Shown: positions 36,928-63,282 of the stretch, in pieces
How positions within the stretch are numbered: the first letter of the stretch is position 1
How the letters are laid out: each line of letters starts with the position of its first letter
DNA from: a virus
Direction: 5' to 3' (one strand)
Length of the DNA stretch: 64,000 nt
Virus record (IMG/VR): IMGVR_UViG_3300034073_003245
Location: 1-64,000 of that record
The notes under the pieces: model-generated
Databases searched by the model: none
The model's input: only the letters and a program-made list of their open reading frames with translations
What the model was told of the DNA's origin: nothing
Translations under genes and position numbers: made by a program

Positions 36928-39900
36928 TACGACCTGTCTCTCTTCTGGCGCTCAATGTCCTTGACTTTTTGAAAAACCATTTCTGCAATTTCATTGGCAG
37001 ACGCATTTGCGTTACCAGAAATATAGAAGTTGTAGTTGTTTCCGCCACCACTGCCCATGGTTAGTGGTTGGCGCGATGCCATTTGACCAACTGGAGTTGC
37101 AGAGTCTCCAATCCCCGGTCCTGGAACAACATGGAGATGTCTCGCTCCGCCTATGCCGTGGAACTCTGCAAACCCGCCACCAGCCCTAACTAGGGTTTGA
37201 TACTGCCCTAGGTTTTGCCCAACTAAATCGTACGCTCTTCCGGTTACGTGGTCTGAGTTTATTGAACCAAGACCGTAGTTTCTAAAGGATGACGTGACCG
37301 TCCGTTTGCCAGTAAGCATTCCATCCATTGCTGAATGTCTTCCCATAGTCTGTGCAAGTTTGCTAGAAGTTGTGTCGCCAATTCTTGAGCCGCGAGGCGT
37401 GGGAGTGTCTTCTGTTTCAAGAAGTTTCTTGAAAGACTCCTTCGTATACCAGGACGGAACTTGTTCTTGCTGGGAAGTATAAAACTCTTTCATCTTGTTG
37501 ATAAGTTCAGTTGTCTTGTTGGCCATCTCCTGTGGAAGATCTTCTAGTTTTGTTGCTTCGCTGGATGGCTTATCAAGGGCTGTCATCTTTAGACCACCAA
37601 GACCGAGAGACGTCAAGTATTCACCCATCCTGAGTGAACCCTGGTTAAAGCCGCCAATTGAAGCCTGCGCAATTTTTGCCAACTGCTCAGGGCTCATCTT
37701 CATGATCCGTTGATTTACCTCTTCGGCATTGAGTGTTTGGCCACTCTTGCCTAGAAGCAGAGTGTTTAGTTGTCCAGATATCTGGCCGGCAAATTGCGGA
37801 AGAACCGCTTTTTGATATTCAACAAACGCAGGATTTTCGTAGAACTTTTGGTCGGCCATTCCCTCAAAAGCGCCGCCTTTTTGATATGCGGTGCCGCCCT
37901 TTTGGAACGAAAGCATTGTCTGGGCAAGAGCCATTCCCGGATCGCCGTAGTATGCAATATTTTGCTCAATAATATCTCTAATAAATTTTGTTTTGTCTTT
38001 TTCCGATGCCTGACCACCACTCGTTGAATCAACAAGATCTCTAAAGGCTCTTGCTGTTTCGTTAAGAATTTCTGGCGCCTCAAGTCTCTTGAGGTTCTCG
38101 TCAAAAATACTCAAGTTGTCAACCAAAATATTATTCAGAGAAGTTTTCATTTGCTCTGTAGTTTTCATGGTCGTTAGACCGAGTTCTTTCATGATCTCAA
38201 TAGAACTCTTGGTTGCGTCATACAGGTTGACATTCATTGACTTGGCAAGTTCGTTAATTTCCCTGTCTGACTTGCCGGTTATGCGATTGAGGTCATCCAT
38301 CCTCTTGTTGTACTTTTCCTGCAGAGGGCCCATAGCCTGCTCAGTAAGTTCCATGTCTTTTTTCATTGTTTTTAGAAATTCGCCAGGCTTTTTTAGGTTT
38401 TCCTCAAGTTCTTTTGAAGACATTTCAACGCCAAGTTGTTTTTGCAAAGAAAAAATTTGCTTGACTGTTTTTTCCTGGTCTGCCCTGTATGAAGGTATTT
38501 CCCCAATAACTTCCTGAACCCTTCTTTGCCTCTCTTGAAGATTTTTAAACACATCTCTAACTGCGGTGCGACCAGAGCCGCTTTCTTTTGCGACAGAATC
38601 AAAAATGCCACTCAATGTTGTATTGAGTATCTCGTTTGTCATCTCTGTTGCGTTTTTACGGGCCTGTTTTGCTTCTGCTCGTTTTTTATTGAGATTTCCC
38701 GCAATAGCACCAACCACACCGCCAACTACTGCTCCAACTGCCGCACCAACAGGACCACCCATCATCGCGCCAAGTGCCGCGCCTCCGCCTATTCCAGAAA
38801 GGGCTCCCCCAGCAGAAGTTTTTGCTGTAAGAGCAGTGCCGCCAAGACCAACAGCCAGGCCAGCAAGTGGGTTCATCATTCCCACCATTCCACCAAGGGC
38901 GAGCGCGCCCTGCGCTTCCTGTGGAGCGATCATTGATAGAGCAGATAGGCCCATTGAGGCTCCCATCTTCCCGCTCATTGAGCCCTGGAATTTGCCCATT
39001 CTTTTTCCAAATTTTCCTTCAGATCTTTGTCTTCTTAGGAAACTGGCAGTCCTTTGACGCCTTGTGTCCTTAAAGTCTTTTCCTCCAGGCGTGTCATCGT
39101 AGTCAACGCTTTGGTTATAAAACCATTGCCCTATTCTGTTAAAGCGTGCTGCTCTGCCAGGAAGATTAACTCTGTAGTTTGGATCACCCGTGTACCATCT
39201 TCTGTTTACTGGACTTGTCGGCCCGGCTGGAATGCTTGGGGTTGGAAGCACAAACCCGCCCGGCCCTCCCGGCCCGCCTGGTCCACCCGGCCCGCCACCT
39301 GGTGCAATAATGATTGGTGCGCCTCCAGTTGACATCATGCCTCTTGATGACATGCCACCACCGCCGCCTGGGGTAATAACTTGGCCCCTGTTGAGCGCAG
39401 CCATTGTTGTGCCAAGGTTTCTTCCGCCAGCGACTGGTGTTGCTGGAGCACCGCGAGCCCCAATTCCGCCTATATTTACATTGTTGGCATTGACGTTCAT
39501 GTTCCTGACGTTTTCTGAGGCGATAAAACCACCCTTGGTGTTTTTCGCTTTTTGAAGACCGGTTCTCATGAGGGCAAATGTTGCGAATGCCCCAAACGCT
39601 CCACCCCCGGTCAGGCCCTGAAGGCCTTTGACCATTGATGTAATAGCGCCAACGATTGCCGTTAGACCCGAGAGAACATCGTTAATAAACGGAAGCATTC
39701 TCTGGAAGAGTTTTGTCATCTCTCCCTGGAATTCCATAATTTTTCCGATTAATTCACCGACACGATCACCAAACTCAAGAACAGTATCGCTGTTGTTCTG
39801 AAGCCATTGGTTGAATTGGCCGAATCTTGACGAACCAACCGCCTTTACGTGAGCCCAAACTCGGCCAAACATTTTCTCAATAACTCTCGCTCCGTCAATG

Positions 39901-41126
39901 TAGGGACGGAGTGTGTCCAGCATCTTGTTCCAGCCATAAGTGAATCTGTCCCACCAGTCGGACATTCTCTGGAAGATTCCCTCTGCTTCGTGGAGGTTAT
40001 TGTTAATAAAATCTGTTAAATATCTAACAACTTTGTCTGTTGCAGAAACTATTGATTCCAGCATTGATCCCATGCCGAATCTCTGGGTGCTTGCAGAAAT
40101 TCTTACAAAACCCCTACGCAAAATATTAAATATATCGTATGCAGCCTGTTTCATTGGCTCAAGAAGAGGCTGACCCAAATCTGCAAGTTGATTTCTTAGA
40201 ATATTAAAATACCCTTTGATTCTGTTCATGAGCGTTCCAGAAACGGCATCAAACTGGCCTTCAACTCCGGCGGCTTTTGCAAGTTCTCCACTAGTGATTG
40301 CTTGTTCAAGTTCTTTCTTTGTGTCAATACCAAGTTTTTTCATTGCCTTTTTCATGGCTTCTTGATCCGGGAAAAGACCTTCGGCTGCAACTTTCGCTTC
40401 CGAGAAACCCTTCTTTGTGTCTTGGAGAATTGCAATAAGTTCTCCAGCCTTCTTCACACCCTCTTCAAGAGGCTGGCCAGCAGAGGCAAAGTCCATCAGC
40501 CCTTTTAGTGTATTTTGTGATCTTTGGTTAAACGTTGAAGTTTTAGAAACTGTCGCAAAAACAGTTCCAAGATTTTGCATACCAGCAGCGGCAAGATATG
40601 CATCAGACTGTAGTGCTCTTAGAGTTTGACGAGACTGGTTAAGACCTGGGCCAAATTCTCTTTTTTGCGTGTAGCGAAACGCAAACATTGCCGCTTCTTG
40701 TTCCCTCATGGCGGCAGCAGCGGCAGATAGACCTGCTGTGAATGCTGCCATACCGGCAGCAAGTGGGCCCATAGTTGAGCGCATTGCTTTCATGATCCAG
40801 TTGCCGGCGACAAACGACGCATGGACGGCAATCATGGCTGCTGACATCAAGCCAAGTTCAAGAACCACTCCCTTTAGGGACAGGTTCATGGCCTTAAGGC
40901 CTATTGTTCCCATCATCTTGACGGATTTGTCAAGAGCATCAAAATGTTTACGCCATTTGACAGATGACTGATTTAGTCTGTTCTGGGTCTGATTTAAGCG
41001 TCCTACGGTGTTGTTGAGCGCTCTTGTGCGACTGTCTAACTGCCGTATGTCTCTGTTGGCTGACCGGAATCCACGCCCATCATAACGAGAGTCTATTTTT
41101 AAGACTGTCTCTGCTGTGGCCGCCAT
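36927..41126 (-). CDS. Tape measure protein with C-terminal M15-like peptidase
   Basis: 1399 residues, the longest minus-strand gene. The N-terminal third is helical with L-D-S-R-T-R-A-L-N-N-T-V-G coiled-coil pattern, then hydrophobic helices (about 75-130), a Gly/Pro-rich middle (about 590-640), glycine-zipper-like helices (about 735-815) and long charged helices. Residues about 1270-1345 contain S-D-H-V-T-G-R-A-Y-D and H-L-H-V-V, the S-x-H-x2-G-x-A-x-D plus H-x-H signature of M15/LAS wall peptidases. The protein sets tail length and probably digests peptidoglycan on ejection. Most family members lack this peptidase. Confidence 0.85.
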   Translation of the reverse strand: MAATAETVLKIDSRYDGRGFRSANRDIRQLDSRTRALNNTVGRLNQTQNRLNQSSVKWRKHFDALDKSVKMMGTIGLKAMNLSLKGVVLELGLMSAAMIAVHASFVAGNWIMKAMRSTMGPLAAGMAAFTAGLSAAAAAMREQEAAMFAFRYTQKREFGPGLNQSRQTLRALQSDAYLAAAGMQNLGTVFATVSKTSTFNQRSQNTLKGLMDFASAGQPLEEGVKKAGELIAILQDTKKGFSEAKVAAEGLFPDQEAMKKAMKKLGIDTKKELEQAITSGELAKAAGVEGQFDAVSGTLMNRIKGYFNILRNQLADLGQPLLEPMKQAAYDIFNILRRGFVRISASTQRFGMGSMLESIVSATDKVVRYLTDFINNNLHEAEGIFQRMSDWWDRFTYGWNKMLDTLRPYIDGARVIEKMFGRVWAHVKAVGSSRFGQFNQWLQNNSDTVLEFGDRVGELIGKIMEFQGEMTKLFQRMLPFINDVLSGLTAIVGAITSMVKGLQGLTGGGAFGAFATFALMRTGLQKAKNTKGGFIASENVRNMNVNANNVNIGGIGARGAPATPVAGGRNLGTTMAALNRGQVITPGGGGGMSSRGMMSTGGAPIIIAPGGGPGGPGGPGGPGGFVLPTPSIPAGPTSPVNRRWYTGDPNYRVNLPGRAARFNRIGQWFYNQSVDYDDTPGGKDFKDTRRQRTASFLRRQRSEGKFGKRMGKFQGSMSGKMGASMGLSALSMIAPQEAQGALALGGMVGMMNPLAGLAVGLGGTALTAKTSAGGALSGIGGGAALGAMMGGPVGAAVGAVVGGVVGAIAGNLNKKRAEAKQARKNATEMTNEILNTTLSGIFDSVAKESGSGRTAVRDVFKNLQERQRRVQEVIGEIPSYRADQEKTVKQIFSLQKQLGVEMSSKELEENLKKPGEFLKTMKKDMELTEQAMGPLQEKYNKRMDDLNRITGKSDREINELAKSMNVNLYDATKSSIEIMKELGLTTMKTTEQMKTSLNNILVDNLSIFDENLKRLEAPEILNETARAFRDLVDSTSGGQASEKDKTKFIRDIIEQNIAYYGDPGMALAQTMLSFQKGGTAYQKGGAFEGMADQKFYENPAFVEYQKAVLPQFAGQISGQLNTLLLGKSGQTLNAEEVNQRIMKMSPEQLAKIAQASIGGFNQGSLRMGEYLTSLGLGGLKMTALDKPSSEATKLEDLPQEMANKTTELINKMKEFYTSQQEQVPSWYTKESFKKLLETEDTPTPRGSRIGDTTSSKLAQTMGRHSAMDGMLTGKRTVTSSFRNYGLGSINSDHVTGRAYDLVGQNLGQYQTLVRAGGGFAEFHGIGGARHLHVVPGPGIGDSATPVGQMASRQPLTMGSGGGNNYNFYISGNANASANEIAEMVFQKVKDIERQKRDRS

Positions 41127-46274: not shown

Positions 46275-46823
46275 TTATCTGTCAGCGTTTGGCGGTTTTT
46301 CAGCAGTAAAGCCAGAGTCAACAGTACCCGCTGGCGCCTCAACTGGAACCCATGCGCGAGAGTATTTGTGATTAGCCACATCTCTGTGCTTTAAAAGGGA
46401 CCCGTCCATCATTAGTTGATACTCGTCGGTCTTCATTTGAAGCAAAGAATCCATGTCTTTTTTGTCATATTTTTTTGACCTAATGATGTTTCTAATAATG
46501 CTGGAAACTGGCTTGGCAACCATGGTTGTTCTGCCCCTGTTGAGACGTATGTGCATCAATTGTGCGTCAATGCTGTCGCAGTCAAAAAAGATCACAGGGC
46601 AACTACCTCCGCATGCATCCTGTATGCGTTTTTGAGACTGCCCCAACAAGAGTCTCTCATTCCCATCAATAACTATATTTGTTGACGACTGGACAATCAG
46701 TGGAGAAAGAATCCCGTAGTCAGCCAACGAACGAGATAGGACCAAAAGATCCGGGCGAAGAATGTGGGTTGATTTAAATGGGGCAACATGAAGTTCCGCG
46801 AAGTCAACATAATCAATCTTCAT
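46275..46823 (-). CDS. ParB-like nuclease-domain protein (small)
   Basis: 182 residues. The ParB N-terminal fold is visible: L-H-V-A-P-F-K, R-P-D-L-L-V-L-S-R-S-L-A-D-Y-G, then S-P-L-I-V-Q-S and V-I-D-G-N-E-R-L-L, with L-N-R-G-R-T later. ParB/Srx domains bind CTP or ATP, or cut DNA. The usual G-x-R-R is replaced by G-N-E-R. It overlaps the PAPS-reductase-like gene by 11 bases. A Pro/Ala-rich tail follows. Confidence 0.75.
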   Translation of the reverse strand: MKIDYVDFAELHVAPFKSTHILRPDLLVLSRSLADYGILSPLIVQSSTNIVIDGNERLLLGQSQKRIQDACGGSCPVIFFDCDSIDAQLMHIRLNRGRTTMVAKPVSSIIRNIIRSKKYDKKDMDSLLQMKTDEYQLMMDGSLLKHRDVANHKYSRAWVPVEAPAGTVDSGFTAEKPPNADR

Positions 46824-47952
46824 TTGCTAGTTCCTGTTCTGCTGCTTTCTGTCTAAGAGTGTGCGCCTTGGTCTTTGGCCCGACCGGCGCTGCTGCGGCA
46901 ACGTTTATTTCATTGAGAAGAAGGTTCCGTATAAGCCAGTTGATCGGGTACGAGTACGGGTCAGCGAGATGCTTTTTTCTGAAGTCGGCTACATAAGCCT
47001 TTGCGCGACGTTCATTATCTATTCCAAGCATGTTTTCATCTATGCATCGCTTAGCGCCATCAAAACCGTCATTCGCGTAACTCTCAATTAATTTCTCAAC
47101 ATCAAAGTCTTTCCACCATCTGCGCTGAGCATCAATTTCCGGCCAACACTCCCAGAGCCTGTCGTAAAACTCTGGCTCGGTGGCTATTACGTCACCAATC
47201 CTACGGATAGCGACAGAGTGGAGGGGAATACCGACACGTGTGTTGCTCCCAGTTAGCGCAGCAACATCGTAATACTCGCAATACTCCGCATTATGCTCTT
47301 CTGAAATAAATTTCAGAACATCATCCATTTGCCAGTCATAGATTACTTTTGCAAACTTCAAAGGTATTGACTTCTTCATTCTGTACGGCGAAACAATGTA
47401 GTTTTCGTGCAGTTTTTGAACCAGAGAACGGTATCTAACCATGGACTCGTTGGCTCTAACGCCAGTGATAAAAGCAACGCTCCCCTTCTTTCCCTGCATT
47501 GTGTAGTAGTCAACCATTTCCGGCAATCCCTCGTCTGAGGTGAGCCCAAAATGCTCTGCAGTGATAGCCCACTCAGGTATCGGTCTAACCCTGCGACCCT
47601 CTTTATATCTCTCATTGCTCCACAGAACAACAGGCTGTCTAGCCCCAAGAACCCATACTTCTGCCAGATATGGCAAGCAGTACCACTCCATATCAACCCA
47701 GTCATATTGCCTGACTTTGTTGGCATACTCGTAAATCATGGGGCTGACCATTTCTTCATCTCTAAAGATGACCTTTACTGGTCCGAGCCCACGTTCTTCA
47801 TGCACTTCTTTTGCTAGATACAAAACGGCAGTGCTGTCTTTGCCCCCAGAAAACTGGACGCATACGGTGTCAAAGGAATCATAAACGTGCCTAATGCGCT
47901 GGCGGGCTGCTTCAACTACGTCTATGTCAAGAAACATCCTCTGTCTAGTCAT
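46813..47952 (-). CDS. PAPS reductase-like protein (IbrA/DndC relative)
   Basis: 379 residues. The PP-loop S-G-G-K-D-S (about residues 35-40) binds ATP, as in PAPS reductases, DndC and IbrA. F-R-D-E-E-M, G-V-R-A-N-E-S and R-I-G-D-V follow. The C-terminal half is rich in Trp, as in IbrA. The usual PAPS-reductase C-x-G end is not seen, so it probably does not reduce PAPS but activates a substrate with ATP. Its pairing with ParB-like proteins is the known IbrA/IbrB arrangement. Confidence 0.8.
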   Translation of the reverse strand: MTRQRMFLDIDVVEAARQRIRHVYDSFDTVCVQFSGGKDSTAVLYLAKEVHEERGLGPVKVIFRDEEMVSPMIYEYANKVRQYDWVDMEWYCLPYLAEVWVLGARQPVVLWSNERYKEGRRVRPIPEWAITAEHFGLTSDEGLPEMVDYYTMQGKKGSVAFITGVRANESMVRYRSLVQKLHENYIVSPYRMKKSIPLKFAKVIYDWQMDDVLKFISEEHNAEYCEYYDVAALTGSNTRVGIPLHSVAIRRIGDVIATEPEFYDRLWECWPEIDAQRRWWKDFDVEKLIESYANDGFDGAKRCIDENMLGIDNERRAKAYVADFRKKHLADPYSYPINWLIRNLLLNEINVAAAAPVGPKTKAHTLRQKAAEQELANED

Positions 47953-48218
47953 AGGTATGTAACCAATCCGCTCAGCCTTGAAATTTCCGCTCTCAGTTCA
48001 TCAATAACTCTATTGAGGCGATTTATTTCAAGATCTTTTTCGTCGGGCTTGCTGTAGTAGGGGTTGTTTTTGTTGTGGACCAAAGTTGCGTATCCGGACA
48101 TGAGATATTCACCCCAGTTGTCTCGCATATAGGCCCACCACTGTTCCCAGTCCTGCATGGACATCTTTCCTGCAGAACGGAATTCAACTCCAATTTCAGC
48201 GCCACTTCCTATAGCCAT
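47949..48218 (-). CDS. Small Trp-rich protein with coiled-coil end
   Basis: 89 residues between the PAPS-reductase-like and large ParB-like genes. Trp-rich middle (D-W-E-Q-W-W-A-Y-M) and a heptad C-terminus (I-N-R-L-N-R-V-I-D-E-L-R). Overlaps on both sides (TGATG, ATGA) tie it to the cassette. It may be an adapter of the ParB/PAPS system. Confidence 0.65.
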   Translation of the reverse strand: MAIGSGAEIGVEFRSAGKMSMQDWEQWWAYMRDNWGEYLMSGYATLVHNKNNPYYSKPDEKDLEINRLNRVIDELRAEISRLSGLVTYL

Positions 48219-48991
48219 CAGTAATCAGCAACCGAGTCAAGAAAGTTAATCAATTTTTCTGATGTTGTATTGCCGTCAGTTCCGGGGTCGTTGCGAAGCC
48301 ACCGGATGAATTCATACCATCGTCTCTGCTGTTCTGGATTGTCAAAAACAAGCGTGTATTGGACCACTGCCTGGGGGGCTGATCCCGGTGCAACAACAGT
48401 GCTGCCAGAAACGGCGACTTCCCTGTGGTCAATATCCCTATTTGCGACAATCTTGCGCTCACCCTCTTCGTCTTCTTCAACATTGAGGGTTGGTGCCTGT
48501 GGGCGCTCCATGACGACAGGTGGGACGTATCCACCAGCGATGGGAGAAATGACTTCACTGGCAATCTGGGATTCCTCCATAGCGGCCATCTCAAACTCAT
48601 CCCAACCAAGATCTTCTAGCAATTCCGGATAGGAGTCATATACGTCAATAAGAAGATCGCTGAGTTCCCTGGGGTCTGTATGTCCAAGTTCCATCGTTCT
48701 GTTGTCTGCAAGCGCGTAGGCAATCGCCGTTTCGTCTGGCACGTCCATTTGTACGGCAGCAATTTCAGTCCACCCAAGACGTTTGGCGGCTTCAAGTTGG
48801 TGGTTTCCTGCGATGACGGTGTATGTTCCGTCAGAATTAGGTCGCACGACTATTGGCTTCATCTGCCCGAACTCGCTGTACGAGGATGCAATAGCGCCGA
48901 TGTTGCCTCGCCTGGGGTTTTTCTCCAGTGGTAACAACTGTTCTATTGGCAGTGCAAGTGACTGCAGGTCTTGGGAAATCTTATTAATCAT
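48218..48991 (-). CDS. ParB-like nuclease-domain protein (large)
   Basis: 257 residues. P-I-E-Q-L-L-P-L-E-K-N-P-R-R-G, then F-G-Q-M-K-P-I-V-V-R and V-I-A-G-N-H-Q-L-E-A-A-K-R-L-G-W form a clear ParB/Srx domain (about 12-100), with A-L-A-D-N-R-T after it. G-N-H-Q replaces G-E/H-R. The C-terminal half is acidic with a Trp-rich end. It resembles IbrB in context. Confidence 0.82.
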   Translation of the reverse strand: MINKISQDLQSLALPIEQLLPLEKNPRRGNIGAIASSYSEFGQMKPIVVRPNSDGTYTVIAGNHQLEAAKRLGWTEIAAVQMDVPDETAIAYALADNRTMELGHTDPRELSDLLIDVYDSYPELLEDLGWDEFEMAAMEESQIASEVISPIAGGYVPPVVMERPQAPTLNVEEDEEGERKIVANRDIDHREVAVSGSTVVAPGSAPQAVVQYTLVFDNPEQQRRWYEFIRWLRNDPGTDGNTTSEKLINFLDSVADY

Positions 48992-54206: not shown

Positions 54207-56276
54207 ATGGCCTGGAACTCAACACAGAACAAGTCTCTATCCGGACAGTCTTCTAAGGCTGCAGTTGGCCCTGGGGCGCCTATTGCACAAAACCTGGCAC
54301 TTGCTGGTCGTCCGTACACTGACTCATGGGACATTGAGCGCGTTTACAAAGAGGGCATGCAGAAGGTCACCTGGGTGGCTAGGTGCATTGACGCAATCGC
54401 AGGAAACCAAGCAAGACTCCCGATTATTCTCCGAAAAGACAATTCTCCGGATGGGGAAGTATTGAGCGGAAGCAAGGCCAAAAACTCCGAACTTCTTAAG
54501 ATCCTGAATACGAAGAGCAATATCGGGGAAAACTCATTTATCTTCAGGTACAGGCTTTCATCGCAACTCCTCATGAGTTCTAGGGGCGCTTTCATTGAGA
54601 AGATCAGGGGGCGCGACGGGAGTATCGTTGGCCTCAACCTTTTGCCGCCACAAGCAACTGCACCAATACCTGATCCAAAGAAGTTTGTTGCTGGCTACGA
54701 AGTAAAAATGCCAAACGGCGGTGCCGTGTACATGAAGCCTGAAGATGTTGTTTGGGTTCGTCGTCCACACCCGCTTGATCCATACCTTTCGCTCACTCCG
54801 CTGGAGGCTGCGGGAATCGCGGTTGAAATTGAGAACTTGGCAAAGGTCTACAACAGAAACTTTCTCCTCAATGACGGCAGACCTGGAGGAATCGTTGTTC
54901 TTCGTGGCGAGATTGACGACGACGACAAAGAAGAAATAAAAAACAGATTCCGTGGAAACCTAACAAAAGCGGGTCAAACAACAGTTATTTCCTCGGACGA
55001 TGGAGCAGACTTTGTAGACACTTCGTCAAGCCCGAGAGACGCTGCCTACATACAAATGCGCCAGATCACCAAAGAGGAGATTCTCGCTTCCTTTGGTGTT
55101 CCTGAGTCGGTCATCGGCAATGCCTCGGGCAGAACATTCTCCAATGCTGGCGAAGAAATTAGAGTCTTCTGGAATGAAACAATGCTCCCCCATCTTGAGC
55201 CTCTCGCTAGGGCTCTTGATGAACTTGATGAGCAGTATTACGTTGACTTTGACACAAGCCAGGTACCTGTTCTTATTCTCTACGAACAGGAGAGAATGCG
55301 TTACATCAAGGAAGAACTTAGCCAGGGGCTTATCAGCGTCAACGAATACAGGATTGCCGCCGGCATGAAGGAAGTTGAGAGCGATCTTGCCGACTCACTT
55401 CTGATGAACCCAAACCTGACCCCCATTGCAAACACAAAAAAGAAGATGGAGGAGCAGACGCAGGCCCAGGTCCAGGGGCCCCCAGGAATGCCGGGGATGC
55501 CCCCAGGCGCTCCCCCGGGGATGCCGCCCGGAATGCCGGGAGCAGGTCCGGTCGGAGCGGGTGGTCCACCGGGGGCGCCAGATCCAACGACCATGGAAGG
55601 CGCAATGCAACTCGCCGGACAAACCCAGGCAATGGCAGAAGATGCTACTGGCACAACAGACCTTCCACCTCTTCCAGTCGCAGAGCCCGAGGTTGCTCCC
55701 GCTACCGCATCAGCACCTTCGGGCGGAATACAGACGAAGTCTGAAGATGAGTGGGACAAGAAGATTAAGACAACATTTAACAGGTGGACAGAAATCCTTG
55801 ACAGAAGCCTTGAGAGGGTTTTTGAGCGCCAACAGAGAGTCGTCCTTGAAAAGGCAACTGGCGCAAAATCTAAAAAACAGATAGAAACCGGTTTGCTGGA
55901 TGTTGATTCAGTTTTCTCAATTGACACTTGGGATAAGCAGATGGACGAAGACATCAAGCCAGTTCTTTCTGCAATCATCAATGATGCGCAAGAAACCTAC
56001 GCAGAAAAAAGCCTCATCAAGTCTCACATGAAGAAAGAGGACATAATCGCCCACATTGACTCTCAGATGTTGAGAATCAAAGCGATTAACGAAGAAACAT
56101 CCTCAGAGATCAGTAGCGCAATTTTTGCTACACTTTCCATTAGGGACCCCGAAGAGCGAGCAACGGCACTTAGGAGCGCTATTGTCACAACTTTCACCAA
56201 TCTTCTGGCAAAGAAGCGTGGACAAATTGCTGAAGACGAAGCCCGTCGTGCCTGGTCAGTTGGTGCCCAAATATAA
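54207..56276 (+). CDS. Portal protein
   Basis: 689 residues. The core (about 45-385) fits phage portals: R-C-I-D-A-I-A-G-N, L-P-P-Q-A-T, V-W-V-R-R-P-H-P-L-D-P, N-F-L-L-N-D-G-R-P-G-G, E-I-L-A-S-F-G-V-P-E-S-V-I-G. Residues about 424-463 are a Pro/Met/Gly-rich run, unusual in portals, then a charged helical C-terminus (about 515-689) of about 175 residues that could act as a MuF-like or scaffold part. The portal ring admits DNA and anchors the tail. It is followed by the protease gene after a 109-base gap. Confidence 0.88.
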   Translation: MAWNSTQNKSLSGQSSKAAVGPGAPIAQNLALAGRPYTDSWDIERVYKEGMQKVTWVARCIDAIAGNQARLPIILRKDNSPDGEVLSGSKAKNSELLKILNTKSNIGENSFIFRYRLSSQLLMSSRGAFIEKIRGRDGSIVGLNLLPPQATAPIPDPKKFVAGYEVKMPNGGAVYMKPEDVVWVRRPHPLDPYLSLTPLEAAGIAVEIENLAKVYNRNFLLNDGRPGGIVVLRGEIDDDDKEEIKNRFRGNLTKAGQTTVISSDDGADFVDTSSSPRDAAYIQMRQITKEEILASFGVPESVIGNASGRTFSNAGEEIRVFWNETMLPHLEPLARALDELDEQYYVDFDTSQVPVLILYEQERMRYIKEELSQGLISVNEYRIAAGMKEVESDLADSLLMNPNLTPIANTKKKMEEQTQAQVQGPPGMPGMPPGAPPGMPPGMPGAGPVGAGGPPGAPDPTTMEGAMQLAGQTQAMAEDATGTTDLPPLPVAEPEVAPATASAPSGGIQTKSEDEWDKKIKTTFNRWTEILDRSLERVFERQQRVVLEKATGAKSKKQIETGLLDVDSVFSIDTWDKQMDEDIKPVLSAIINDAQETYAEKSLIKSHMKKEDIIAHIDSQMLRIKAINEETSSEISSAIFATLSIRDPEERATALRSAIVTTFTNLLAKKRGQIAEDEARRAWSVGAQI

Positions 56277-56385: not shown

Positions 56386-59300
56386 ATGTCATATAGCAAC
56401 ATTGAGTTCAAGTCAAACCCGGGCCAATTCAACATTGACGAGGCCCAGGGCATCGTTGAGTGTTTCGTGGCGGGCATTGGCAACAAAGACTCGGTAGGCG
56501 ACGTTCTTGTTCCTGGAGCATTTTCAGAAAGCCTTAAGAGAAGAAAGCCTCGCGTTGTGTGGGGCCACAACTGGAATGACCCAATTGGAAAAGTCCTAGA
56601 GATTTATGAGGTTGGCCCTGGAGACGCCAGACTCCCACAGAAGATGCGCCAGGCCGGAATCGGCGGTCTTTACGCCAAAGTGCAATTCAACCTGAATTCG
56701 GAGAAGGGTCGCGAGGCTTTTGCCAACGTGGCTTTCTTCGGCCATGAGCAAGAGTGGTCAATTGGATACAAGACCATTGACTCAATCCATGACCCAGGCG
56801 TCAAGGCGAACATCCTCAAGGAAGTTGAACTTTACGAAGTTTCGCCAGTTCTTCACGGCGCCAACCAGTTGACTGGCACAATTTCTGTAAAGTCAGACGA
56901 TCTGGCCCTGGCCGATGCAGAAAAGGGTTGGGGCATGGGGATGCCACACCACATGATGGGCATGAAGCCGCAGCAACCACAGGTCATCGTTATTAGAGAA
57001 GACGACGATGATGATGACAAGTACGAGTCTGAGAAGCCGATTTTTGCCGAGGGGCTCGCTCAGCCGATTGGCGGACAACAGCGACGTATGCTTGAAAAAG
57101 AAATCGCTGAAAGAACCGGTTCTCAAATCCGCCTAATTGAGGCGACCGAAAACACGGCAGTTTTTTCAAGAATGATGCCTACTGGCGGAACAATGGTTTT
57201 CCGCGTCAGTTATCACACCCCTGACAATTTCAGAACTTTTATGTTTGGCAAGCCGGAACTTGCAGACGGCCAAGTGACAATGCCGGGTGCGACGCAAAAG
57301 CCAAGAACGGTTGTTCCCTCCCAGATGCCATCAATGCCCATGCAGGTTAAGCCCGGCTATTCGCAAGACGAAATGGGGATGTATTCATTCCCTAAGTCTG
57401 GTGAGACGGAAAAGTCTGATCTAGGTTCCCAGATTCAGGCCATTGAGGACATCCTCATGGCTGAAACTGAGGAAAAAGTTGGCAGAACCCTCAATAGAAG
57501 AAATCTTTCAAAACTGAAGTCAGTCATGGAGAGCCTTCAAGAAATAATTGCTTCTGCTGAAAAGGAAATGGACACAAAGGGGTACGTGATCCCGGTTCCA
57601 TTGGAAGAGGCATTTAGCACCAAGCAACTTCTAGATCCAATCTTTGACTATCACAGAGTTGAGACTCAAGTTACAGAAGACGGAATTGTCATTACTTCCG
57701 GAGTTACACAGGAATTCATAGAGGCAATTGGCGTTGCCGAAAAAGCGCTCGGGCGCACGCTGAGGGGCGGCCCGGGAAAAGCGCGCCGCGCCGGGCGCGG
57801 CCTGGCGGCACGCTTTGATCCAAACGCCTGGGACGGAGACGGAGACGGCTTAGTTCAGGAAGGTACACCTTTCCAGCGTCCTGCGATTCCAGGAGTTAAC
57901 GACCGTTCAACTCGCGGAAGAGTTGACCCAGCAGCAGCAACACAGGCCTGGCAAACAGGTCAGCGCGGAATGGCTTCGCGCGGCGGTCGCCGTATCACCT
58001 TGGGCAATGCGAACCCGAATAGTTTGGGCCCGATGTACGGCTATGACCCAGAAGAGCAGGACTTCAGTTCTGAATCTTATTGGGAAGAAGTTTTTACAGA
58101 CAGCGACGATATGTTGCCGTTTTTTCAGGAATGGCTTGAAAAGGAAAAAGGCAAAGAAGCGCTCTGGCATGAACTATCAGATGATGAATTTGAAGAATTG
58201 GTTGATAAGTGGAAGTCAAGCGATGCGTTTGAAAAAGACGTAAAACGCTACGCTGAAATTCAGGCCGATGAAGGAATAGAAGATGGCGAAGCATTTAGGT
58301 CCCTATTCAAGCGGTCAACGCTTGACAAAGTGTGGGTAAGAAACGAACCCAAAGAACGCGGGATGGCATCTCGCGCCGATGTTTTGACAGATCTGGCCAT
58401 AGATAGCGACGTATCTGAAGCAATAGATTCTATTGTCAGAGAAGTGCTTGTTTATTCTGGGACAGGGGATAAAGACAAGATTTCTGACTTGGTTTCAGAC
58501 GCGGCCAGAGAGATTCTTGACTCCATTAATTTTGACTCCATCAAAGACAGCCCTGGTAAAGCAGTTTCTGATTTCAGAAAAAAACTTGTGGAAACACTGT
58601 CAGACGAGGACTTTTTGCGCGAAGCAATGAGGAAAAAGGACGCAATTAATGAGTTTGTTGATGGTTTATACGACGCCGTAAATTCTGCTTTTGAAAAATA
58701 TGAAGATCATCTCAAAAAAACTGGTGGAGACTTTGAAGACTTTGCCGATTTGAAATTTGAACTCCTTGATGACCTTGACGGAAGAGTTTCTAAAATTCTC
58801 AATTCATCGCGCAAATTATTTGGCGAACTAAAATCAAAGAAAACTGAAGACGAATATAAGTCCAGAGATGAACGTAGAAAGTTAATTGCCTCAATACGGG
58901 CAGGGGAACTTCCTAAAGACTGGAGAGGTAGAGAGACAGAAGACCTAGTGGATGGTCGTGTTGCGTATGAGGAAGCACTTGAAGAAATTGTAAACAACAG
59001 CCCAGATGCAGACATTGACGAGTTGATGTCTGACTATATTGAGGCCGTCAGAGAGGGCGCTAGGAAAAATCCGGACAACAGAGTCCTCGCAGTCCTTGCT
59101 GATGTGTACGGAGATGATGGGAAAATAACAGACGAAGAACTCAAGAGAAACCTGCAGGACGTAGCAAGACGCTCTCCATTTAACAAAAAGAGGGGCAGAA
59201 ATGAGAAAGAAGTTCTTCGCGGCATGGCATCTCGCGGTGGCGGGCGTCCTGGCGACCCGATAACCGACCAAGAGCGCAATAAGGTCAAGAGAGACAGCAC

Positions 59301-62300
59301 TGCCGTATCAATGTTCAAAGAGTCAACAGACTACGACAATGCTTTTAATTCTTGGCAAAAAGCCAACCCTGGAAAGTCGGAAAAAGACTTTGAAAAGTCG
59401 CCGGAATTTACTGATGCACTGGTTGAGTTTGACAGATACCTGCTTGACCAAGCATCAAAGGCCACGGGGATTCGCTACAGCAGAACCATGCCATATAGCG
59501 GTGGTCCAATTTCTCTTGAGCAAATGACTGCTAAGCAAATTCTCAGAGACAGAATGTCTGGGATGTCTCTTGATGATGTCGCTGAAAAAATGAATCTGTC
59601 TCGCGAGAAAGTCAGATCGCTTGAGGCTCAGGAAGTTATGCGCCTGAGAGATGATGCTTCACCTAGAGAAATACTTGCCTACAGAACAATGGGCTTGAGC
59701 CTTGAAGACACAGGTCGTCTCTTTGGCATGCGCCCAGAGGACGTGCGCAAAGCAGAAGCCAAAGAGATGGCCGACATCCGCAAGGATATGGACGACAACA
59801 AACTTATTGAACTCCGGATGATGGGCTTTTCTCTTGATGATCTCGCAGAAATCACCGGAGCCAGTAGGGAAGATCTTCGTAAGCGGGAAATACAAAGACT
59901 AAGAAGAGGCCCAGAAGACGGTGGCGGCGCGCGCGGAATGGCTAGCCGTGGAAGGTCAGAAGACTTTGACGGCGGGTATGACGAGGCGTACGGTCCGACA
60001 CCCCCCATAACAAGAAGGCCGCCGGTCGGAGAATGGGATGTCCTCGTGGGTGAAGAAGCCTACGAGAGAGAAGATGCCAGCAGGCAGCAACGCGGCATGG
60101 CAAGCCAAAACGTTAGACCAAACGCCGGTCTAGTTAAGTACTCAACAGATCTATTGAATGAAAAACTTGAAGACCTGGACTCAGATCCTCAACCAGGAAT
60201 GGCCGGAGCGACCCTTGATAAGACATGGGCAGAGGGAGTGCTTGATGGGCTTCGTGACGGCAGACTTTCATCTGATGACGCAATCAACATCATTGGCCTA
60301 GCAGGCAACGATGTCTTTAACGAAGGCAAGAAGCCAGAAGGCGAAAGAAACCAGGCACTCATTGATTCACGTATCAAGTTGAGCAAGAGGCTAAGAAGGT
60401 CTGTCGTTGATTCAATGTCCGAGGGCGACATGGAGGAATACCAGGCAAATCGCCGCAGAAGAATGGGTGCTGATCGTGGAATGAGAAGCACTCTTTCTGA
60501 GGCAAACAGAAGGAGGGATGCCGGCCTTACTCCAGGCACTGGTGATCCATCCCCGGGAACACGTGGCCAAAGAGTGGCATCAAGTGGCGGCGAGTACAAG
60601 CCGAACACAGAAGAAAGAGATGCTGCGATTATTCAAAGGCTGAGAGACATAGGCCTTAGCGATGATGAAATTTCCGAATTGACTGGAATAGACAATCTTC
60701 CAGACGCAGAAAGAGGAATGGCATCAAGAGAAATAAAACTAAACAATCGGCAGATTGATAACGCCTTATCAGAACTTGACAATTTGACAGATGATCGTGG
60801 TTATGAAGATTGGGAATCAATCCAAAAACTGCGTCAGCAATTGTCGGACGCCAAAGACAACAACGGAGTTTTTTCTCCTTCTGAGAGGGATATTGAGGAC
60901 TATCTTGACGAACTAGAAAAACTTGAAGATGCAGGATTTGACGACTGGGAAGGTCTGTCAATGATCCGTTCTATTATTAGTGATTCTAGGGGCGAACGTG
61001 GCATGCGCTCAAGAAACTCCGAAATAGATATGACCCTTGAGGAATACGGTCAACTTCTTGACACTCTTGACAAATATGTTGACGGAAGCGCGGGCGAGGG
61101 AGTCGGCGCTGATGACGACATGCGTGTTCTTCAGCAGGTAATGGACAAACTTGAGGCGAGCCAAAACGCCAATGACGCAGTTGAACTAACGTCTGACGAA
61201 ATTTCTGACTATCTAGACAGTCTTAAGAATATCCGCGACAACGGTCCAATGGAGGACGCGACTTCTGGCGACAAGGCTAATATCAACAAGTTGATCTCAG
61301 CCCTTGAGGGGGCTAGGGATTCACGGGATGGATCCTACGAGACGCCGGCATTAAGGCGTTCCGGCGCAAGAATTAGCGACCAGCAGGGAAGGGCGTTTAG
61401 GTCATCAAGCGGAACTGTTAACCCTCACGAAAAAATTGAGATGACCCTCAACGGCGATGATATCTCAGCAATGGTTGAAGACATTGACGCGCTTCTGAAA
61501 CAAACCCCAAATTCCGCAGCACTTAAGGCTGCTAGAGAAAAGTTCTCAAAGGCCAAGACTGGTGAAAAGATCACCATGGATAAAGACGAGTACGAGCAAC
61601 TCTACAAAGACATTGAGACAGCAAAAACGCAGGGCAATAGGGTCACTTCTGAACTCGCATCACTTCTTGACCAGGCAGCAGAAAGCAAAGATGGCAAGTA
61701 CGTTGACCCCAACCTAAGAGGACGCGGCGGTATGGCGTCTCGTAATAATGGGGCTCCTTCAGACATTACAGAGGCAATGCAGAAGGAATACATCTTCTGG
61801 GCCAGAAATAACCCAAATCTTTTTGTCGCTCAAAGAATCCTGAAGAAGTACGACGATAACGATGGACAATTGTCCGCTAGGGACTGGAGAGCGCTTGACA
61901 CTCTCTACACGAACTTAAGCCCACGTGGAGGCGGTCGTCGCTCTGGAATGAGATCTCGTTCGGGCCGTGATGCGGAAATAGAGAAACAGAAAAAAATAGA
62001 CGCCGAAAGAATGCGATCAGGCTCCACCACGGGATCGGAGAGCGAAAGAATTGGCAGATCTTCAGAGGGAACTGGAGTCTCAGCCAGTGGTCTTGGAGAC
62101 ATTGGCATTCGTGGTGAAGGCGCAAGCCAGAGGACAGAAACACCTGGCCCTTCAGAGAAGAAATTTACAGGGAAGTCATTCAATGAAGTCCAACCAGATA
62201 ACTGGGAATCTCTTGACATTGAGGAGAAGTACGACTGGCTATTCAGCAATGGCAAGCCGGAGGTTTCAGGAATGTCGCCGGCGGCCTATGAGGGCGCTCT

Positions 62301-63282
62301 CAAGAAGTTAATTGCGGAAGAAGAGGCTCTTGAAAAGGCCAATACCCGCAGAGCCAGAAGAGCAGGGGCGGGCCAAGATCGCGGAATGGCATCACGTGGA
62401 AGAACCCCGAGTCAAAATGCCACCTATGACTGGGTTAACAATTTAAGCAGCCCTACTGAAAAATGGCTTGAAGAAAAGAATAAAGCAACCCTTGATTCGT
62501 ATAAGGAATGGAAAAAAAACCTGGGAACTATAACCCCAGGAGGACAAGCGCCAGAGATGCTCAGGGGCATGTCTTCTCGCTCCGGTGGTTCTGGTCGCCA
62601 GGGAAGAACAATGATTACCGACGAAGCAACATACTTCGGTGAGATTGAGAAGAACCTCCCAGTTGAGATAAGAAAAGCAACAGAAGCAAAAGAATCAAAA
62701 ATTTCCCAAGCATTATCGCTGCTGCAGGACATTATCAAGAAACAAGAAGCATCAAAGACCGGTTCAAGAAGAACCAATACGGGAAGCATTTTTGTAACAG
62801 CCGACGAGGCTGATCGTATTCTTGATGCGCTTATGTGGGTTATTGATAGACAGGTCCAAAGAAATGGCAACGAAGAAAGAATATCTGCTTTTGCAAAACT
62901 GGTTGACAAGATGGCACAAGCCGCCATGTCAACTTTTGTAAACAGAGACACATCAGAAATCGGTTCTCGCACTACAAAAAGAACCAACAGCCGAGGAAAA
63001 GAAGTTGAGATCCCCGATGCCGGTATAGGCCTGCCAAGAGGAATGGCTTCTAGTTCTAATTTAGGCGGTTACAATAGACGCAGAACACAAGCGGCGGACA
63101 AAAAATTTGAAGACATCCTTCGTGAGGAAGTTGAAACAAAATTGACTCCAGATCAGCAGAAAAGATACAGCAAACTATACGAAGCAGAAATGGCCAAGTA
63201 CGGCGGCGCTGGGCTGGCATTAAAGAGACAAGAAAAAAAAGAAATACACCAAAGAATCATGAAAGAAATTCTCGGCCAGTAA
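56386..63282 (+). CDS. Giant prohead protease with repeat-punctuated extension
   Basis: 2298 residues from ATG 56386 (GAGGAG 4 bases upstream; a TTG seven codons earlier is rejected). Residues about 1-175 are an HK97/U35-type prohead protease: G-I-V-E-C-F-V-A-G, G-A-F, V-V-W-G-H-N-W, W-S-I-G-Y and E-V-S-P-V. This domain normally ends near 200 residues. From about 471 a motif R-G-(L/M)-(A/R/S)-(A/S)-(R/S) recurs 14 times: 471, 527, 658, 945, 1183, 1236, 1364, 1443, 1538, 1780, 1852, 1999, 2060, 2218. After the first copy comes D-P-N-A-W-D-G-D-G-D-G, a calcium-loop-like motif. Segments between are helical and charged. Residues about 1047-1175 hold three helix-turn-helix-like units. Later segments repeat an L-T-S-D-E-I-S-D-Y-L-type module. 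It may be a polyprotein cut at these sites during head maturation. Confidence 0.85.
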   Translation: MSYSNIEFKSNPGQFNIDEAQGIVECFVAGIGNKDSVGDVLVPGAFSESLKRRKPRVVWGHNWNDPIGKVLEIYEVGPGDARLPQKMRQAGIGGLYAKVQFNLNSEKGREAFANVAFFGHEQEWSIGYKTIDSIHDPGVKANILKEVELYEVSPVLHGANQLTGTISVKSDDLALADAEKGWGMGMPHHMMGMKPQQPQVIVIREDDDDDDKYESEKPIFAEGLAQPIGGQQRRMLEKEIAERTGSQIRLIEATENTAVFSRMMPTGGTMVFRVSYHTPDNFRTFMFGKPELADGQVTMPGATQKPRTVVPSQMPSMPMQVKPGYSQDEMGMYSFPKSGETEKSDLGSQIQAIEDILMAETEEKVGRTLNRRNLSKLKSVMESLQEIIASAEKEMDTKGYVIPVPLEEAFSTKQLLDPIFDYHRVETQVTEDGIVITSGVTQEFIEAIGVAEKALGRTLRGGPGKARRAGRGLAARFDPNAWDGDGDGLVQEGTPFQRPAIPGVNDRSTRGRVDPAAATQAWQTGQRGMASRGGRRITLGNANPNSLGPMYGYDPEEQDFSSESYWEEVFTDSDDMLPFFQEWLEKEKGKEALWHELSDDEFEELVDKWKSSDAFEKDVKRYAEIQADEGIEDGEAFRSLFKRSTLDKVWVRNEPKERGMASRADVLTDLAIDSDVSEAIDSIVREVLVYSGTGDKDKISDLVSDAAREILDSINFDSIKDSPGKAVSDFRKKLVETLSDEDFLREAMRKKDAINEFVDGLYDAVNSAFEKYEDHLKKTGGDFEDFADLKFELLDDLDGRVSKILNSSRKLFGELKSKKTEDEYKSRDERRKLIASIRAGELPKDWRGRETEDLVDGRVAYEEALEEIVNNSPDADIDELMSDYIEAVREGARKNPDNRVLAVLADVYGDDGKITDEELKRNLQDVARRSPFNKKRGRNEKEVLRGMASRGGGRPGDPITDQERNKVKRDSTAVSMFKESTDYDNAFNSWQKANPGKSEKDFEKSPEFTDALVEFDRYLLDQASKATGIRYSRTMPYSGGPISLEQMTAKQILRDRMSGMSLDDVAEKMNLSREKVRSLEAQEVMRLRDDASPREILAYRTMGLSLEDTGRLFGMRPEDVRKAEAKEMADIRKDMDDNKLIELRMMGFSLDDLAEITGASREDLRKREIQRLRRGPEDGGGARGMASRGRSEDFDGGYDEAYGPTPPITRRPPVGEWDVLVGEEAYEREDASRQQRGMASQNVRPNAGLVKYSTDLLNEKLEDLDSDPQPGMAGATLDKTWAEGVLDGLRDGRLSSDDAINIIGLAGNDVFNEGKKPEGERNQALIDSRIKLSKRLRRSVVDSMSEGDMEEYQANRRRRMGADRGMRSTLSEANRRRDAGLTPGTGDPSPGTRGQRVASSGGEYKPNTEERDAAIIQRLRDIGLSDDEISELTGIDNLPDAERGMASREIKLNNRQIDNALSELDNLTDDRGYEDWESIQKLRQQLSDAKDNNGVFSPSERDIEDYLDELEKLEDAGFDDWEGLSMIRSIISDSRGERGMRSRNSEIDMTLEEYGQLLDTLDKYVDGSAGEGVGADDDMRVLQQVMDKLEASQNANDAVELTSDEISDYLDSLKNIRDNGPMEDATSGDKANINKLISALEGARDSRDGSYETPALRRSGARISDQQGRAFRSSSGTVNPHEKIEMTLNGDDISAMVEDIDALLKQTPNSAALKAAREKFSKAKTGEKITMDKDEYEQLYKDIETAKTQGNRVTSELASLLDQAAESKDGKYVDPNLRGRGGMASRNNGAPSDITEAMQKEYIFWARNNPNLFVAQRILKKYDDNDGQLSARDWRALDTLYTNLSPRGGGRRSGMRSRSGRDAEIEKQKKIDAERMRSGSTTGSESERIGRSSEGTGVSASGLGDIGIRGEGASQRTETPGPSEKKFTGKSFNEVQPDNWESLDIEEKYDWLFSNGKPEVSGMSPAAYEGALKKLIAEEEALEKANTRRARRAGAGQDRGMASRGRTPSQNATYDWVNNLSSPTEKWLEEKNKATLDSYKEWKKNLGTITPGGQAPEMLRGMSSRSGGSGRQGRTMITDEATYFGEIEKNLPVEIRKATEAKESKISQALSLLQDIIKKQEASKTGSRRTNTGSIFVTADEADRILDALMWVIDRQVQRNGNEERISAFAKLVDKMAQAAMSTFVNRDTSEIGSRTTKRTNSRGKEVEIPDAGIGLPRGMASSSNLGGYNRRRTQAADKKFEDILREEVETKLTPDQQKRYSKLYEAEMAKYGGAGLALKRQEKKEIHQRIMKEILGQ
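57796..63054 (+). repeat. Dispersed RGMASR-coding repeats (14 copies)
   Basis: Copies begin at 57796 (R-G-L-A-A-R variant), 57964, 58357, 59218, 59932, 60091, 60475, 60712, 60997, 61723, 61939, 62380, 62563 and 63037. Most are R-G-M-A-S-R. Variants are R-G-M-R-S-R, R-G-M-S-S-R, S-G-M-R-S-R, R-G-M-R-S-T, R-G-M-A-S-S and R-G-M-A-S-Q. Codon use differs between copies (CGC, CGT, AGA or AGG for the first Arg), so the protein motif, not the DNA, is kept. Confidence 0.9.
59524..59910 (+). repeat. Three tandem helix-turn-helix-like units inside the protease extension
   Basis: Residues about 1047-1175 contain three copies of about 38-41 residues. Units carry G-M-S-L-D-D-V-A-E-K-M-N-L-S-R-E, G-L-S-L-E-D-T-G-R-L-F-G-M-R-P-E and G-F-S-L-D-D-L-A-E-I-T-G-A-S-R-E. 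Each resembles a sigma-factor region-4 or LuxR-type helix-turn-helix. A shorter fourth relative (G-L-S-D-D-E-I-S-E-L-T-G-I) occurs near residue 1425. Confidence 0.75.

What the first reader, a model, noticed from the sequence alone, without database searches (positions are those of the whole stretch)
56386..63282. Giant prohead protease that may be a self-cleaving polyprotein
Prohead proteases are usually about 200 residues. This one is 2298, and its extension is divided into 13 segments by 14 copies of an R-G-M-A-S-R-like motif starting at residue 471. Synonymous codons differ between copies, so selection acts on the peptide. A protease joined to regularly spaced short motifs suggests that it cuts itself, and perhaps other head proteins, at them to release internal head peptides. 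Alternatives are a repeated binding site for capsid or portal, or flexible linkers. This is the best candidate for an undescribed system here.
Basis: partly seen in the sequence, partly recalled or inferred. Interest (0 to 1): 0.92.

Follow-up and report, generated by a model that had tools for sequence, protein, structure and literature searches.

The report
Phage protease fused to effector polyprotein
This uncultured bacterial virus makes its head-maturation protease as the front end of a very long chain of small protein modules separated by one short repeated tag, and comparison with dozens of relatives suggests that the tag is where the chain is cut to release proteins carried inside the virus particle.

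Summary
The ORF at 56386-63282 (2298 aa) starts with an intact S78 prohead protease and carries 13 GM[A/R/S]S tags (0.12 expected by shuffling), plus a few degenerate ones. The spacing is irregular, 53-287 aa.

The finding is larger than the window. Relatives in IMG/VR carry protease ORFs of up to 5,494 aa. Each genome has its own tag spelling (GMASR, GMRSR, GFASR, GLRSS, PLGSR, GSKST, STRS, RLSS; Ser constant). The same spelling recurs in that genome's other giant head-module ORFs and, in several genomes, in its tape measure protein. Modules homologous between genomes end at the tags; one conserved exonuclease module is flanked by each genome's own spelling; Pfam domains never contain a tag; the tags tested fall in predicted linkers. 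Modules include ArdC plus polyvalent-protein metallopeptidase, exonuclease, KTSC, HTH and Zeta-toxin-like domains.

Best reading: the prohead protease cuts before the Ser (P1'), releasing polyvalent-type cargo from several polyproteins in cis and trans. Cleavage itself is untested.

The parts
56386..63282 (+). Prohead protease-polyprotein ORF, 2298 aa
   Evidence: Shine-Dalgarno-like GAGGAG upstream of the ATG
56449..56883 (+). Peptidase_S78 domain (residues 22-166); predicted catalytic His61 (56566-56568) and Ser125 (56758-56760)
   Evidence: Pfam E=2e-11; His61 and Ser125 invariant in 100/100 aligned proteases
57799..57813 (+). Degenerate tag GLAAR at the protease/extension junction (residue 472)
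   Evidence: in relative G010 the protease gene stops here and the extension is a separate ORF
57814..57906 (+). Acidic loop module FDPNAWDGDGDGLVQEGTPFQRPAIPGVND, usually single and just before the first tag of each polyprotein
57964..57981 (+). Tag RGMASR (residue 527)
58357..58374 (+). Tag RGMASR (658)
59218..59235 (+). Tag RGMASR (945)
59500..59800 (+). Sigma70 region-4-like helix-turn-helix repeats inside segment 949-1186 (approximate coordinates)
   Evidence: Sigma70_r4 E=3e-8; no tag inside
59932..59949 (+). Tag RGMASR (1183)
60091..60108 (+). Tag RGMASQ (1236)
60475..60489 (+). Tag RGMRS (1364)
60712..60729 (+). Tag RGMASR (1443)
60997..61014 (+). Tag RGMRSR (1538)
   Evidence: AF2 linker
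61009..61737 (+). Segment 1542-1784: helical domains; the homologous segment in G007 has a tag within 2 and 1 residues of its ends
61390..61407 (+). Degenerate tag RAFRSS (1669), at the edge of a predicted linker
61723..61743 (+). Tag RGGMASR (1780)
   Evidence: AF2 linker
61738..61953 (+). Segment 1785-1856 (NNGAP module), found also in non-protease ORFs of relatives
61945..61959 (+). Tag GMRSR (1854)
   Evidence: AF2 linker
62380..62397 (+). Tag RGMASR (1999)
62563..62580 (+). Tag RGMSSR (2060)
62575..63048 (+). Segment 2064-2221, which is the C-terminal end of the protease ORF in relatives G005, G011 and G016
63037..63054 (+). Tag RGMASS (2218)
54207..56276 (+). Portal gene directly upstream
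   Evidence: Pfam E=5e-52
39342..39356 (-). GMSSR at residue 591 of the tape measure protein (ORF 36927-41126), in a Gly-rich stretch where several relatives have a tag of their own spelling

Best explanation
The 2298-aa ORF is a head-assembly polyprotein. Its N-terminal S78 prohead protease cuts the C-terminal extension at RGMA|SR-like tags, most likely just before the constant Ser. It also cuts at the same tags in three other large ORFs of the same head module and perhaps in the tape measure protein. Cutting releases a set of small proteins, many with polyvalent-protein-type domains (anti-restriction, nuclease, DNA-binding), to be packaged in the head and probably delivered with the DNA. Each phage lineage has its own tag spelling, which has changed in step across all of its substrates. 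Shown by sequence: the tag arrays, genome-wide spelling coherence, tags at module boundaries, module shuffling between ORFs, and the linker location of the tags tested. Inferred: that the tag is cut, that the prohead protease is the cutter, the exact scissile bond, packaging and injection.
For: Protease intact, His61/Ser125 invariant in 100 relatives. 361 tags in 70 large ORFs against 17 expected. Tag spelling of the protease ORF matches that of the other large ORFs of the same genome: cosine 0.83 against 0.33 permuted, p<5e-5; tags nearly absent from smaller ORFs. Homology ends lie within 10 aa of a tag 14.8% against 5.6%; between genomes of different spelling both partners have their own tag at the end 103 times against 9.9. 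An exonuclease module 52-55% identical to that of G001 is flanked by GMRS, GLAS or GSKS according to genome. No Pfam domain placed contains a tag; ArdC-N+metallopeptidase always share one segment. AF2 low-confidence linkers coincide with the tags in residues 1537-1862. Protease standalone with tag-rich ORF next door in G010 and others, i.e. the fusion is dispensable. The MCP residue before a conserved Ser is the best of 433 columns for tracking tag P1 class, 11/12 against 0/10 basic, p=3e-5. Ser at P1' is established for HK97 gp5 (mature end Ser104, PMC5701804), P1 MCP (E120|S121, PMC9024508) and preferred by SPN3US gp245 (PMC10052503).
Against: No cleavage data. The MCP, the canonical substrate, has no full tag, and in genomes with S-type tags its residue 97 is Lys. 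The MCP correlation follows clades and may rest on one or two events. Protease-residue co-variation was inconclusive. The tag also occurs in the tape measure, a tail protein. At one junction some relatives have lost the tag with the segments still joined. The protease-region model gave no significant PDB match.
Confidence: 0.74

Rival explanations
1. The tag is a docking or packaging peptide: a repeated short linear motif that binds a phage structural protein (MCP inner surface, portal or scaffold) and holds long, uncleaved cargo proteins inside the prohead.
For: Genome-wide shared spelling would also follow from a co-evolving binding partner; tags sit in linkers; the MCP correlation could reflect a binding partner.
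Against: Docking needs neither one tag at nearly every module boundary nor respelling at homologous junctions. It does not explain why the array is fused to, or next to, the head protease, nor why the tags occur in the tape measure. The constant Ser with A/R/K/S/G before it looks like a P1-P1' pair.
Confidence: 0.13
2. The tags are processing sites, but for another protease: a host enzyme or a different phage-encoded peptidase (for example the zincin-like metallopeptidase modules carried by some polyproteins), perhaps after injection.
For: Polyvalent proteins carry zincin metallopeptidases proposed to process them (PMC5512222), and these are present in G003, G004, G008 and G010. Tags in a tail protein suit a non-prohead enzyme.
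Against: No MPTase-PolyVal match in the window phage's ORFs scanned, whereas an S78 protease is present in every genome used and is fused or adjacent to the array in nearly all. MCP residue 97 tracks tag P1.
Confidence: 0.09
3. The tags are neutral low-complexity linkers or remnants of module duplication, with no sequence-specific reader.
For: Linker-like surroundings and module shuffling are real.
Against: Synonymous codons differ between copies and there is no DNA repeat, so the peptide is under selection. Whole-genome respelling with a constant Ser, including at homologous junctions, is not expected of neutral linkers.
Confidence: 0.04

Closest known systems
Polyvalent proteins (Iyer et al. 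2017, PMC5512222)
   Same: Very large multidomain phage proteins with ArdC-N, PolyVal metallopeptidase, nuclease, HTH and kinase-type modules, encoded near head genes and predicted to be packaged and injected; processing proposed. An assemblin-like peptidase occurs in a few.
   Different: [quoted passage not shown] Here the S78 protease is N-terminal, and a repeated lineage-specific tag marks module edges in several ORFs. No such tag is described in that paper's passages read here.
HK97-type prohead protease (Pfam S78, HK97 gp4) with MCP delta-domain removal
   Same: Same protease family, next to portal and upstream of an HK97-type MCP; cleavage before Ser (mature gp5 begins at Ser104).
   Different: Usual S78 proteases are about 200 aa and cut themselves and the MCP. 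Here the protease heads a polyprotein of thousands of residues with more than a dozen putative sites.
T4 gp21 and SPN3US/phiKZ gp245-type head proteases with many substrates
   Same: One head protease recognises a short motif in many head proteins, including injected proteins, and can cut a propeptide several times; SPN3US prefers Ser at P1'.
   Different: Substrates are separate genes losing propeptides; the motif (A-X-E) is conserved between relatives rather than respelled in each lineage; cargo is not a chain of modules fused to the protease.
Herpesvirus assemblin-scaffold precursor (own knowledge; not tested here)
   Same: Protease at the N-terminus of a fusion, with internal sites cut before Ser (Ala-Ser).
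   Different: Few sites and a scaffold product, not a many-module cargo polyprotein.
Phage P1 Pro / DarA-DdrB internal head proteins (PMC9024508, PMC5512222)
   Same: Anti-restriction proteins packaged in the head, some proteolytically processed; MCP cut E|S.
   Different: Separate genes; no tag array and no protease fusion.

Membership tests
S78 prohead protease | Sequence match to the S78 family over the curated cut-off | tested here: met
   Pfam 44.8 bits, cut-off 21; PHROG 80 E=3e-29
S78 prohead protease | Catalytic His and Ser conserved | tested here: met
   His61 and Ser125 in 100/100 aligned sequences
S78 prohead protease | Gene next to portal and in the head module with an HK97-type MCP | tested here: met
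   Portal at 54207-56276; MCP homologue at contig 79908-81242
S78 prohead protease | Protease activity and self-cleavage | not testable with these tools
   Needs expression of wild type and Ser125Ala
S78 prohead protease as reader of the tag | Its canonical substrate (MCP) shares the tag's P1 preference | tested here: inconclusive
   Best of 433 columns, 11/12 against 0/10, but confounded by clade; no full tag in the MCP
S78 prohead protease as reader of the tag | Protease residues co-vary with tag spelling on the tree | tested here: inconclusive
   Nine P1 changes, but only three supported independent pairs
Polyvalent proteins | Several domains of unrelated activity in one large polypeptide | tested here: met
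   In relatives: ArdC-N, MPTase-PolyVal, RNase_T, KTSC, pentapeptide. In the window ORF itself only the protease and HTH repeats are recognisable
Polyvalent proteins | Packaged in the virion and injected with DNA | not testable with these tools
   Inferred from head-module location only
Polyvalent proteins with assemblin-like peptidase | Peptidase at the C-terminus (as stated in PMC5512222) | tested here: not met
   Here it is N-terminal; the C-terminal arrangement does occur in cultured relative DalanDe

The most novel reading that the evidence does not exclude
A drifting cleavage code. In a large group of uncultured, mostly aquatic phages, one head protease and a short tag language, respelled in each lineage, turn several giant polyproteins (up to 5,494 aa) and the tail tape measure into dozens of separately packaged proteins. 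Effector modules can be plugged in between tags, and each lineage's tag set would be orthogonal to its neighbours'.
Probability: 0.45. Interest if true: 0.9.

Novelty: new variant of a known kind. Interest (0 to 1): 0.8.

Why it matters
If the tags are cut, tailed phages have a true polyprotein strategy: a single gene would encode the maturation protease and a dozen or more cargo proteins, with the site sequence changing from lineage to lineage across all substrates. That would explain how very large phage ORFs carry anti-defence enzymes into cells as individual proteins, would supply a natural set of protease-tag pairs with possibly distinct specificity, and would give a rule for splitting many giant 'hypothetical' phage proteins into their real products.

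Tried and rejected
Internal translation start at the Met of GMAS: rejected, because most spellings (GFAS, GLRS, GSKS, RLSS) have no Met. DNA-level repeat: rejected (no tandem repeat; varied codons). Giant size alone brings tags: rejected, since Gilgamesh gp48 (4,624 aa) and a 3,289-aa ORF of DSL-LC01 have none. Full tag in the MCP: not found. Co-variation of protease residues with tag P1: inconclusive. Foldseek of the protease-region model against PDB: no significant match. Cultured phage carrying segments 486-2298: none by tblastn. Literature searches for a phage prohead-protease polyprotein found nothing closer than polyvalent proteins; that library holds no preprints and lacks most subscription journals.

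Full report
OBSERVATION. The ORF at window 56386-63282 is a single open frame of 2298 codons, preceded by GAGGAG close to the ATG and directly downstream of the portal gene (54207-56276, Pfam E=5e-52). Residues 22-166 match Peptidase_S78 (E=2e-11) and PHROG 80, head maturation protease (E=3e-29). The predicted catalytic His61 and Ser125 are invariant in all 100 proteases aligned. The extension holds 13 GM[ARS]S copies; shuffling gives 0.12 on average and never more than 3 in 2000 trials. Two degenerate copies (GLAAR at 472, RAFRSS at 1669) are also visible. Codons vary between copies and there is no tandem DNA repeat. The spacing ranges from 53 to 287 residues and is not regular.

NOT ONLY THIS ORF. 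The window is part of an 85,716-base virus record. The same RGMASR tag recurs in three more large ORFs past the window edge, of 1902, 1177 and 778 aa. These lie between the protease and the major capsid protein (MCP), which I found at contig 79908-81242. One GMSSR copy lies in a Gly-rich stretch of the tape measure protein.

RELATIVES. Four scans with protease sequences retrieved 76-80 loci each from IMG/VR. They reduce to 99 distinct proteases, cultured relatives included, of which 55 could be given a spelling. Their protease ORFs reach 5,494 aa (G003). The tag is spelled differently in different genomes: GMRSR in G001, GFASR in G002-G004, GLAS in G007, GLRSS in G017 and G018, PLGSR in G008, GSKST in G010, and SSRS, STRS, SMRS, RLSS and GMSS elsewhere. 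Aligned, all place a Ser at the fourth position after A, R, K, S or G. The patterns I used contain that Ser, so its constancy within genomes is partly by definition; the unbiased k-mer counts support it independently. Cultured relatives (GMA6, Chidiebere, Cantare, DalanDe, Gilgamesh) and lake phage DSL-LC01 show no repeated tag in the large proteins examined, even where they encode giant ORFs.

SHARED SPELLING. In 16 genomes the spelling profile of the protease ORF matches that of the other >=700-aa ORFs of the same genome (mean cosine 0.83). Permuting genomes gives 0.33 on average and at most 0.68 in 20,000 trials (p<5e-5). The tags are nearly absent from smaller ORFs. Several genomes also carry their own spelling in the tape measure, near residue 45 and/or 600-650. 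Some relatives encode the protease as a standalone gene of about 460-550 aa with a separate tag-rich ORF nearby, as in G010 and others.

TAGS MARK MODULE EDGES. Ends of homology between large ORFs fall within 10 residues of a tag in 14.8% of cases, against 5.6% when tag positions are rotated (maximum 7.6% in 500). Between genomes with different spellings, both partners have their own tag at the homology end 103 times against 9.9 expected (maximum 26 in 300). A roughly 300-aa exonuclease module of G001 (GMRS flanks) is 55% identical to one in G010 (GSKS flanks) and 53% to one in G009 (GLAS flanks): the module stays and the tag is respelled. None of 19 Pfam domain placements contains a tag, and ArdC-N plus its metallopeptidase always share one segment. 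In the window ORF, residues 1542-1784 correspond to a G007 segment with a tag within 2 and 1 residues of its ends. Residues 1240-1367 and 1785-1856 occur in non-protease ORFs of relatives. Residues 2064-2221 form the C-terminal end of the protease ORF in G005, G011 and G016. Sequence around tags is hydrophilic. The AF2 model of residues 1537-1862 (mean pLDDT 73) has exactly four segments below 50, at model residues 1-5, 124-133, 243-249 and 312-326; the three tags and the first residue of the degenerate one fall in these (tag starts 3, 133, 246, 318).

CARGO. Relatives' polyproteins contain ArdC-N, MPTase-PolyVal, RNase_T exonuclease, KTSC and pentapeptide domains. The window ORF has sigma70-region-4-like HTH repeats between two tags, and a sister ORF has a Zeta-toxin-like kinase domain. 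This is the repertoire of polyvalent proteins (PMC5512222), which are predicted to be packaged and injected.

READER. The S78 protease is the natural candidate: fused or adjacent, intact, and of a type that cuts head proteins. HK97 mature gp5 starts at Ser104 (PMC5701804), phage P1 MCP is cut E120|S121 (PMC9024508), and SPN3US gp245 prefers Ser at P1' (PMC10052503). I tested whether protease residues track the tag's P1 class: nine changes on the tree, but only three supported independent pairs for basic versus non-basic, so inconclusive. Scanning 433 MCP columns, the residue just before a conserved Ser (97|98 in this phage) is the best correlate: basic in 11 of 12 genomes with R/K tags and 0 of 10 with A/G tags, Fisher p=3e-5, about eighty-fold better than the next column. 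I noticed this column by eye before the full scan. In S-tag genomes the residue is Lys (5/5), not Ser, and the pattern follows clades, so it may reflect only one or two events.

JUDGEMENT. Cleavage at the tags by the phage's own head protease is most likely (0.74). Docking peptides (0.13) and another protease (0.09) remain open. Against: no direct evidence of cutting, no full tag in the MCP, tags in a tail protein, and one junction where tags are lost in some relatives. The kinds of part are known (S78 protease, polyvalent modules), so I file it as a new variant. I did not find the combination, or the lineage-by-lineage respelling, described in the papers searched.

Noticed in passing
57814-57906; contig 73575-77108 (residue ~253); most relatives: An acidic Ca-binding-like loop (DPNAWDGDGDGxVQEGTPFxRPAxPG) occurs, usually once, near the start of most tag-bearing polyproteins, just before the first tag; it may be an address or anchoring module.
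   Followed up: partly
61009-61737: Segment 1542-1784 is predicted as two domains of similar secondary-structure order separated by the degenerate tag RAFRSS; this looks like an internal duplication.
   Followed up: partly
36927-41126 (-), residue 591, and relatives' tape measure proteins: Tape measure proteins carry tags in the genome's own spelling near residue 45 and/or 600-650, so the tag reader may also act on a tail protein.
   Followed up: partly
L005 (Gordonia phage DalanDe gp27), L356:17979-31853 (Streptomyces phage Gilgamesh gp48): DalanDe has the S78 protease at the C-terminus of a 1633-aa protein; Gilgamesh has a 4624-aa ORF between portal and protease with no tags and no Pfam match.
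   Followed up: partly
L169 (G003), L177 (G008): KTSC domains are repeated within single polyproteins (4-5 stretches), a domain of little-known function.
   Followed up: no
46813-47952 (-), 46275-46823 (-), 48218-48991 (-): A phosphoadenosine phosphosulfate reductase gene beside two ParB-like genes in the middle of the structural region.
   Followed up: no
contig 64858-70566 (L003:2858-8566): The 1902-aa sister ORF contains an HEMVH (HExxH) stretch that resembles a zincin metallopeptidase but matches no peptidase model in Pfam.
   Followed up: no
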